Origin: Spirochaeta sp.
GTDB taxonomy: Bacteria > Spirochaetota > Spirochaetia > DSM-27196 > Alkalispirochaetaceae
Direction: 5' to 3'
DNA: 64,000 nt
Assembly: GCA_007130865.1 (NCBI GenBank)
Contig: SLRR01000001.1
Coordinates: 1 to 64,000 of the forward strand
Shown: positions 22,350 to 29,776 of the stretch, piece after piece
Position numbering within the stretch: the stretch's first letter is position 1
Layout: every line of letters starts with the position of its first letter
Notes under the pieces: generated by a model
Seen by the model: only the letters and a program-made list of their open reading frames with translations
Database searches by the model: none
Told to the model about the DNA's origin: nothing
Position numbers and translations under genes: made by a program

Positions 22350-22442
22350 TTGTCCGCCCGCGGCGGAACTTGTCCGCCGATAGAAAGCACTCATCCCGTA
22401 GAGGACTTTCACCTCCAAGCGGGTGTGCCCTGCCGGGCACAC
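22350..22442 (-). pseudogene. Possible 5' remnant of a group II intron (domain I start), ORF-less
   Basis: Minus strand GTGTGCCCGGCAGGGCACACCCGCTTGGAGGTGAAAGTCCTCTACGGGATGAG resembles bacterial group II intron 5' ends (GTGYG..CCCGGCA.GGG.GCAC...GGTGAAAGTCC). Confidence 0.45.
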
Positions 22443-22445
22443 CAT

Positions 22446-22476
22446 CAAAAAGGCGGTGCCGCAATGCAGCACCGCC
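22446..22476 (-). terminator. Rho-independent terminator of tRNA-Asn
   Basis: Minus strand GGCGGTGC-TGCATTGCG-GCACCGCC-TTTTT. Confidence 0.85.
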
Positions 22477-22613: not shown

Positions 22614-22775
22614 GTCGGAGGACAGGTATTCGCAAAGTGAAGGGACGTGGTCCCTTCACTTTGCGAATACGCCGCGGCACAACCTAGGAAAGAAGCAAAA
22701 TCGAGACGTTTTCGGCGAGTTCTCAATGTGGGGTGTCGGAACGACATCCCACATTGAGAACTCCTGGTCGGAGGA
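22614..22775. mobile_element. MITE-like non-autonomous element (22623-22766, 144 bp) with CAGG/CCTG ends, a hairpin at each end, and 9-bp target duplications GTCGGAGGA
   Basis: Direct repeats 22614-22622 and 22767-22775 identical; hairpins 22626-22670 and 22717-22763; ends CAGGTATTCGC... and (reverse complement) CAGGAGTTCTC... Confidence 0.8.
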
Positions 22776-29702: not shown

Positions 29703-29776
29703 AAGCGAAAACAGGAGTTATCGAGTAGGAGGCCGGCGAAAGCCCGCCTCCTACTCGAGAATACCTGAAGCGAAAA
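29703..29776. mobile_element. MITE-like palindromic element (29712-29767, 56 bp), CAGG/CCTG ends, 9-bp target duplications AAGCGAAAA
   Basis: aagcgaaaa at 29703-29711 and 29768-29776; internal hairpin CAGGAGTTATCGAGTAGGAGG...CCTCCTACTCGAGAATACCTG with GAAA loop. Confidence 0.78.

What the first reader, a model, noticed from the sequence alone, without database searches (positions are those of the whole stretch)
22614..22775. 144-bp element with hairpins at both ends and a perfect 9-bp target duplication
The block 22623-22766 begins CAGG and ends CCTG and is bounded by identical 9-mers GTCGGAGGA (22614-22622, 22767-22775). Each end is a near-perfect long hairpin starting at the last G of CAGG: GTATTCGCAAAGTGAAGGGAC/GTCCCTTCACTTTGCGAATAC (22626-22670, about 21 bp) and GAGTTCTCAATGTGGGGTGTCG/CGACATCCCACATTGAGAACTC (22717-22763, about 22 bp). 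The two ends read inward as CAGGTATTCGCAAAGTG and CAGGAGTTCTCAATGTG, so they are related inverted repeats. IS200/IS605 and REP elements have end hairpins but make no target duplication, and ordinary MITEs have TIRs and duplications but rarely a full hairpin at each tip. This element combines both. It sits just upstream of the tRNA-Asn -35 box.
Basis: partly seen in the sequence, partly recalled or inferred. Interest (0 to 1): 0.85.

Follow-up and report, generated by a model that had tools for sequence, protein, structure and literature searches.

The report
Double-hairpin mobile mini-element in spirochaetes
A gene-less 144-base stretch of DNA that folds into a hairpin at each tip has jumped to dozens of places in an uncultured spirochaete and its sister species, duplicating 9 bases each time; it is a new family of small hitch-hiking transposon whose helper enzyme was not found.

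Summary
Window 22623-22766 is one copy of a dispersed element. Its own genome has 12 intact or near-intact two-hairpin copies plus many truncated ones; copies also occur in three of six sister species. Of 27 insertions with both ends (three genomes), 16 have perfect and 10 have one-mismatch 9-bp target duplications, all different. All six sisters are empty at the window site. Three 143-bp copies in one sister are identical at different sites, so movement is recent.

The hairpins covary strongly, also between species. Same-tipped, double-hairpin 149-150-bp elements with 9-bp duplications occur in another family of the class.

Derivatives lacking one hairpin (102 bp at two sites; 111 bp) and single-hairpin forms (27-56 bp) also carry duplications, one of them at window 29712-29767.

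No autonomous partner was found. In one distant genome the tips adjoin a GxxExxY (PD-(D/E)XK) gene, a weak lead. Most likely it is a MITE-like element moved in trans by an unidentified transposase making 9-bp staggered cuts. The layout recalls REPINs, but the duplication and CAG tag argue against IS200/IS605 or REPIN membership. New variant of a known kind.

The parts
22614..22622 (.). left 9-bp target duplication GTCGGAGGA
   Evidence: identical to 22767-22775
22623..22766 (+). whole element, 144 bp
   Evidence: aligned with other copies, nearly all starting CAGG and ending CCTG
22623..22639 (+). left tip CAGGTATTCGCAAAGTG
   Evidence: matches the tip motif CAGGNRTTCTNAAWGTG with one mismatch
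22626..22670 (+). hairpin 1, 21 pairs
   Evidence: two-sided changes in 6 of 17 outer-stem pairs
22671..22673 (+). inner GCC, can pair with the inner GGC
   Evidence: 96% of cells paired, but no two-sided changes
22674..22713 (+). core between the hairpins, well conserved within the genome
   Evidence: core matched in many truncated copies; differs between species
22714..22716 (+). inner GGC
22717..22763 (+). hairpin 2, 22 positions
   Evidence: two-sided changes in 7 of 22 pairs
22750..22766 (-). right tip, inward CAGGAGTTCTCAATGTG
   Evidence: exact tip match
22767..22775 (.). right 9-bp target duplication GTCGGAGGA
29712..29767 (+). second, 56-bp single-hairpin element with related tips (CAGGAGTTAT...GAGAATACCTG)
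   Evidence: flanked on both sides by AAGCGAAAA; hairpin z = -7.2
29703..29711 (.). 9-bp duplication of the second element, left copy AAGCGAAAA
29768..29776 (.). 9-bp duplication of the second element, right copy AAGCGAAAA

Best explanation
The block is a non-autonomous transposable element (MITE-like) with CAGG...CCTG termini. SHOWN: it is multi-copy; its copies are flanked by different 9-bp target duplications; the window copy is an insertion absent from the sister species; it moved recently in at least one sister. INFERRED: a transposase supplied in trans recognises the outer tips, cuts out or copies the element, and joins it to 9-bp staggered target cuts that the host fills in. INFERRED: each tip carries an inverted second copy of itself, making a foldback hairpin, perhaps because the element arose from two solo palindromic units (CAGG-hairpin-CCTG, as seen in a sister genome) whose inner ends changed from CTG/CAG to GCC/GGC, so that only the outer ends work. 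Matching changes in the two arms and inverted loops fit correction of one arm from the other during replication, with or without selection for the folded form.
For: Copies: 80 matches to the 162-bp query in its own genome and 67 with a covariance model, hairpin self-matches included. 26 of 27 two-ended copies have 9-bp duplications with at most one mismatch, 16 of them perfect, all different. Empty sites between tRNA-Asn and the neighbouring gene in all six sisters. Identical 143-bp copies at three sites in G005. Same architecture with a different core in G001, G003 and G005. Related 149-150-bp double-hairpin elements with 9-bp duplications in another family. Symmetric target preference: A is almost absent at position 3 and T at position 7 of the duplication. 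Solo palindromes of 27-54 bp with 9-bp duplications in G003.
Against: No transposase with matching ends was found: tip pattern in seven genus genomes, DDE_Tnp_1 loci without matching ends, no ISAs1 family. Most assemblies searched are fragmented, so a multi-copy partner may be unassembled. The assignment to a DDE-type enzyme rests only on the fixed-length duplication.
Confidence: 0.82

Rival explanations
1. Structure-guided transposition: the folded hairpins (as cruciform or single strand) are what the mobilising enzyme recognises, so the stems are under selection.
For: Strong two-sided covariation (covariation score 0.193 against 0.100 in shuffles; 40 cells changed on both sides against 11.9). 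The double-hairpin layout persists in another family with other sequence.
Against: A 102-bp derivative without the left hairpin occurs at two loci with different perfect duplications, and a third locus has the same junction (L019, L021, L039). A 111-bp copy lacks the right hairpin (L062). Loop inversions and a hairpin built on intron sequence (29712-29767) fit DNA-level palindrome correction. Related sequences can exceed the shuffles without selection.
Confidence: 0.3
2. REPIN-like element moved by a RAYT/HUH (Y1) transposase.
For: Layout is like a REPIN: two hairpins in inverse orientation, each with a short tag at its outer foot.
Against: 9-bp target duplications in 26 of 27 copies; IS200/IS605-type HUH transposition makes none (established knowledge). 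The tag is CAG, not GTAG or CGTC as described in PMC3733652. RAYT genes in the genus were not searched for.
Confidence: 0.04
3. The mobiliser belongs to gene-bearing elements encoding a GxxExxY (PD-(D/E)XK) protein, and the short elements are deletion derivatives of these.
For: In G163 (other family, same class) a multi-copy tip CAGCAATTCTCAATGTG leads into a GxxExxY-like gene start (L197); a decayed GxxExxY gene is followed by a tip (L220; PF13366 26.4 bits over cut-off 22; TIGR04256 27.4 bits, below its cut-off of 35).
Against: No intact copy with both tips was seen. No PF13366 gene in any of the seven genus genomes, including G005 where the element moved recently. The gene may be a passenger.
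Confidence: 0.08
4. A fixed structured RNA, terminator or regulatory element of the tRNA-Asn region.
For: Perfect hairpins next to a tRNA gene; sub-threshold RT-3 match, 22.3 bits.
Against: Absent from the orthologous site in all six sisters. No Rfam match at threshold. The RT-3 match is not shared by the other copies scanned, and miRNA models match the hairpins equally well by shape.
Confidence: 0.01

Closest known systems
Bacterial MITEs (review PMC10969869; e.g. Chunjie, MITEAba12)
   Same: Short, gene-less, multi-copy, constant-length target duplication, related inverted ends, truncated copies.
   Different: Each end here is a complete foldback hairpin of about 21-22 bp; no parent IS with the same ends was found; solo-hairpin forms down to 27 bp also carry duplications.
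REPINs / REP elements with RAYT (PMC3116915, PMC3733652)
   Same: Two hairpins in inverse orientation with a short tag at each outer foot, short and dispersed.
   Different: CAG tag instead of GTAG or CGTC; 9-bp target duplication; RAYT not tested for.
IS200/IS605-derived elements
   Same: Subterminal hairpins at both ends.
   Different: Those make no target duplication (established knowledge); here it is 9 bp in almost every copy.
ISAs1 family and IS4-group (IS10/IS50) elements
   Same: From general knowledge: CAGGG ends with 8-10-bp duplications (ISAs1); 9-bp duplications (IS10/IS50).
   Different: No ISAs1 transposase in the genus; DDE_Tnp_1 loci found in the genus lack matching ends; hairpin tips are not a feature of those families as far as I know.

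Membership tests
MITE (non-autonomous DNA transposon) | short, no transposase gene, many dispersed copies | tested here: met
MITE (non-autonomous DNA transposon) | constant-length target duplications that differ between copies | tested here: met
   26 of 27 copies, 9 bp
MITE (non-autonomous DNA transposon) | terminal inverted repeats | tested here: met
   CAGGNRTTCNNAAWGTG-like at both ends, related rather than identical
MITE (non-autonomous DNA transposon) | autonomous relative with the same ends | tested here: inconclusive
   none among 7 genus genomes; assemblies fragmented; weak GxxExxY link elsewhere
REPIN / RAYT | GTAG or CGTC tag at the hairpin foot | tested here: not met
   tag is CAG apart from a few point variants; tag consensus from PMC3733652
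REPIN / RAYT | no target duplication | tested here: not met
   9-bp duplications
REPIN / RAYT | RAYT (Y1) transposase gene in the genome | not tested
IS200/IS605-derived element | insertion without target duplication | tested here: not met
ISAs1-derived MITE | ISAs1 transposase present in the genome or genus | tested here: not met
   NF033564: 0 of 7 genomes
RT-3 RNA (RF03068) | match at gathering score, shared by homologues | tested here: not met
   22.3 against 40.5 bits in the window; absent in other copies scanned

The most novel reading that the evidence does not exclude
An undescribed superfamily of transposable elements in Spirochaetia in which transposition needs the tips folded as hairpins yet produces 9-bp duplications, with a mobiliser that is not a known transposase, possibly the PD-(D/E)XK protein GxxExxY found next to such tips in one genome.
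Probability: 0.12. Interest if true: 0.8.

Novelty: new variant of a known kind. Interest (0 to 1): 0.5.

Why it matters
It combines two hallmarks usually kept apart: complete hairpins at both ends, as in single-strand (HUH) elements, and fixed 9-bp duplications, as in double-strand (DDE) transposition. Natural derivatives (two hairpins, one hairpin, solo 27-bp palindrome) form a ready deletion series for asking what such an end really needs. The hairpins also appear to act as landing pads for group II introns. It probably explains many contig breaks in assemblies of this genus.

Tried and rejected
Autonomous partner: C233:30870 and 32165 looked like two ends about 1.3 kb apart, but ordinary genes lie between them and they are separate remnants. 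DDE_Tnp_1 loci: no matching tips. ISAs1: none. PF13366 in the genus: none. About 0.75 Mb of G163 and G177 was fetched to find an intact GxxExxY element; only the decayed copy was found again. Exact core pattern in the GTDB collection: no match; tip pattern: 25 loci, 23 of them in two Spirochaetaceae MAGs, plus single tips without hairpins in a Bathyarchaeota and a Sneathiella record, judged chance. Viral contigs, plasmids and phages: no match. RT-3 RNA: rejected. ORF-spanning test for insertion into genes: uninformative in this GC-rich DNA.

Full report
OBSERVATION. The block is exactly as described. The 9-bp repeats are at 22614-22622 and 22767-22775, with 144 bp between them, hairpins at 22626-22670 and 22717-22763, and CAGG/CCTG termini. 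Only one other stem of 13 or more pairs with a short loop exists in the 64 kb (29721-29758). DNA folding gives -51.5 kcal/mol, z = -11.8.

IT IS MULTI-COPY. The 162-bp query finds 80 matches in the window's own genome, G000, and a covariance model built from 18 copies finds 67; both counts include hairpin self-matches on the opposite strand. Twelve copies in G000 are intact or near-intact (12 full-length model matches over 140 bits), and many more are truncated. Many copies sit at contig ends, as expected when repeats break a short-read assembly. Among 46 genomes of the order, only G000 and three of the six sister species (G001, G003, G005) carry it.

IT MOVES. Of 27 two-ended copies from three genomes, 16 have perfect 9-bp duplications and 10 have one mismatch, all different in sequence; the last (L017) has an altered left tip, and its flanks repeat in another register. 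Folded symmetrically, the duplications avoid A at position 3 and T at position 7, as expected for a symmetric synaptic complex. All six sister genomes keep tRNA-Asn next to the same neighbouring gene without the element. In G005 three copies at different sites are identical over 143 bp, so movement there is recent.

ANATOMY ACROSS SPECIES. The sister elements keep CAG-hairpin 1-core-hairpin 2-CTG and a length of 142-145 bp, while hairpin bodies and core differ. On the alignment, 93% of cells pair; 40 cells have two-sided changes (shuffles 11.9 +/- 2.8); the covariation score is 0.193 (shuffles 0.100 +/- 0.008; slid versions at most 0.067). Within G000 alone the same stem step reads GC, TA, CC or TC with matching partners. 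Loops occur in both orientations: CTTG and CAAG in G005, GTG and CAC, GGAAC and GTTCC in G000. Matching arms plus inverted loops are what copying of one arm from the other would give, so the covariation is not by itself proof of selection.

DERIVATIVES. The 102-bp form that lost hairpin 1, with the junction CAGGTATTGCCACC, occurs at two loci with different perfect duplications, and a third locus shows the same junction (L019, L021, L039). The simplest reading is that it moved after losing the hairpin; identical independent deletions are less likely but not excluded. A 111-bp copy of the G005 type in G000 lacks hairpin 2 and has a perfect duplication (L062). G003 has solo palindromes of 54, 51, 51 and 27 bp with 9-bp duplications. 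The window holds a second element at 29712-29767 (56 bp, AAGCGAAAA on both sides). Its hairpin body contains GCCTCCTACTCGA, nearly the 3' end of a group II intron found elsewhere in the genome (RF00029), which suggests an intron fragment trapped between the two tips and then made palindromic (inference).

WIDER FAMILY. The tip motif occurs in 19 of 249 genomes of the class. Several hits are single and may be chance. In G177 (another family, f36), elements of 149-150 bp have the same tips, an inverted second copy of each tip (two hairpins, z about -4.4 to -4.6) and 9-bp duplications with one mismatch. In G163 the tips are multi-copy and lead into the start of a GxxExxY-like gene; a decayed GxxExxY gene (PF13366) is followed by a tip. 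No intact example was found, and the genus of the window has no such gene.

MECHANISM. Shown: mobility, 9-bp duplication, recent activity, covarying hairpins. Inferred: trans-mobilisation by a transposase that uses the outer tips and a 9-bp stagger. Not shown: the enzyme, whether movement is cut-and-paste or copy-paste, and whether the folded hairpins are recognised or are by-products of palindrome correction. In the 102-bp derivative the left end shares only about 8 bp with the canonical tip, so requirements at that end may be small.

COMPARISON. By behaviour it is a MITE. By layout it resembles REPINs (PMC3116915), but the tag (PMC3733652) and the duplication fail that test. It was therefore filed as a new variant of a known kind.

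Noticed in passing
window 29703-29776: Second element of the same kind: 56-bp single hairpin with related tips and a perfect 9-bp duplication AAGCGAAAA; its body carries group II intron 3'-end-like sequence.
   Followed up: yes
L034:1646-1694 (G000:C130) and L028/L188 (G000:C157:1-180): Group II introns (3' end RF00029 in L188) abut the element's hairpin 1, and L191 has an intron-like 3' end followed by a tip: hairpins appear to serve as intron landing pads.
   Followed up: partly
window 22395-22452, minus strand: About 58 bp about 90% identical to the apparent group II intron 5' end seen in L034; probably a truncated intron fragment beyond the 3' end of tRNA-Asn.
   Followed up: partly
L063:1557-1573: A lone 17-bp tip CAGGAGTTCTCAATGTG between perfect 9-bp repeats GGTAGACAT; a deletion at a TGGG microhomology would explain it.
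   Followed up: partly
L147 (G003:C71:7537 and 10044): Two same-strand tips 2.5 kb apart, both followed by CGGCGCCGT; nature unclear.
   Followed up: no
L210, L212, L213: Isolated tip-like sequences in G020 and G030 without a recognisable second end or duplication.
   Followed up: no
G163 contig ends (L196-L201): Multi-copy leader from tip towards a GxxExxY-like start codon; assembly breaks inside it.
   Followed up: partly
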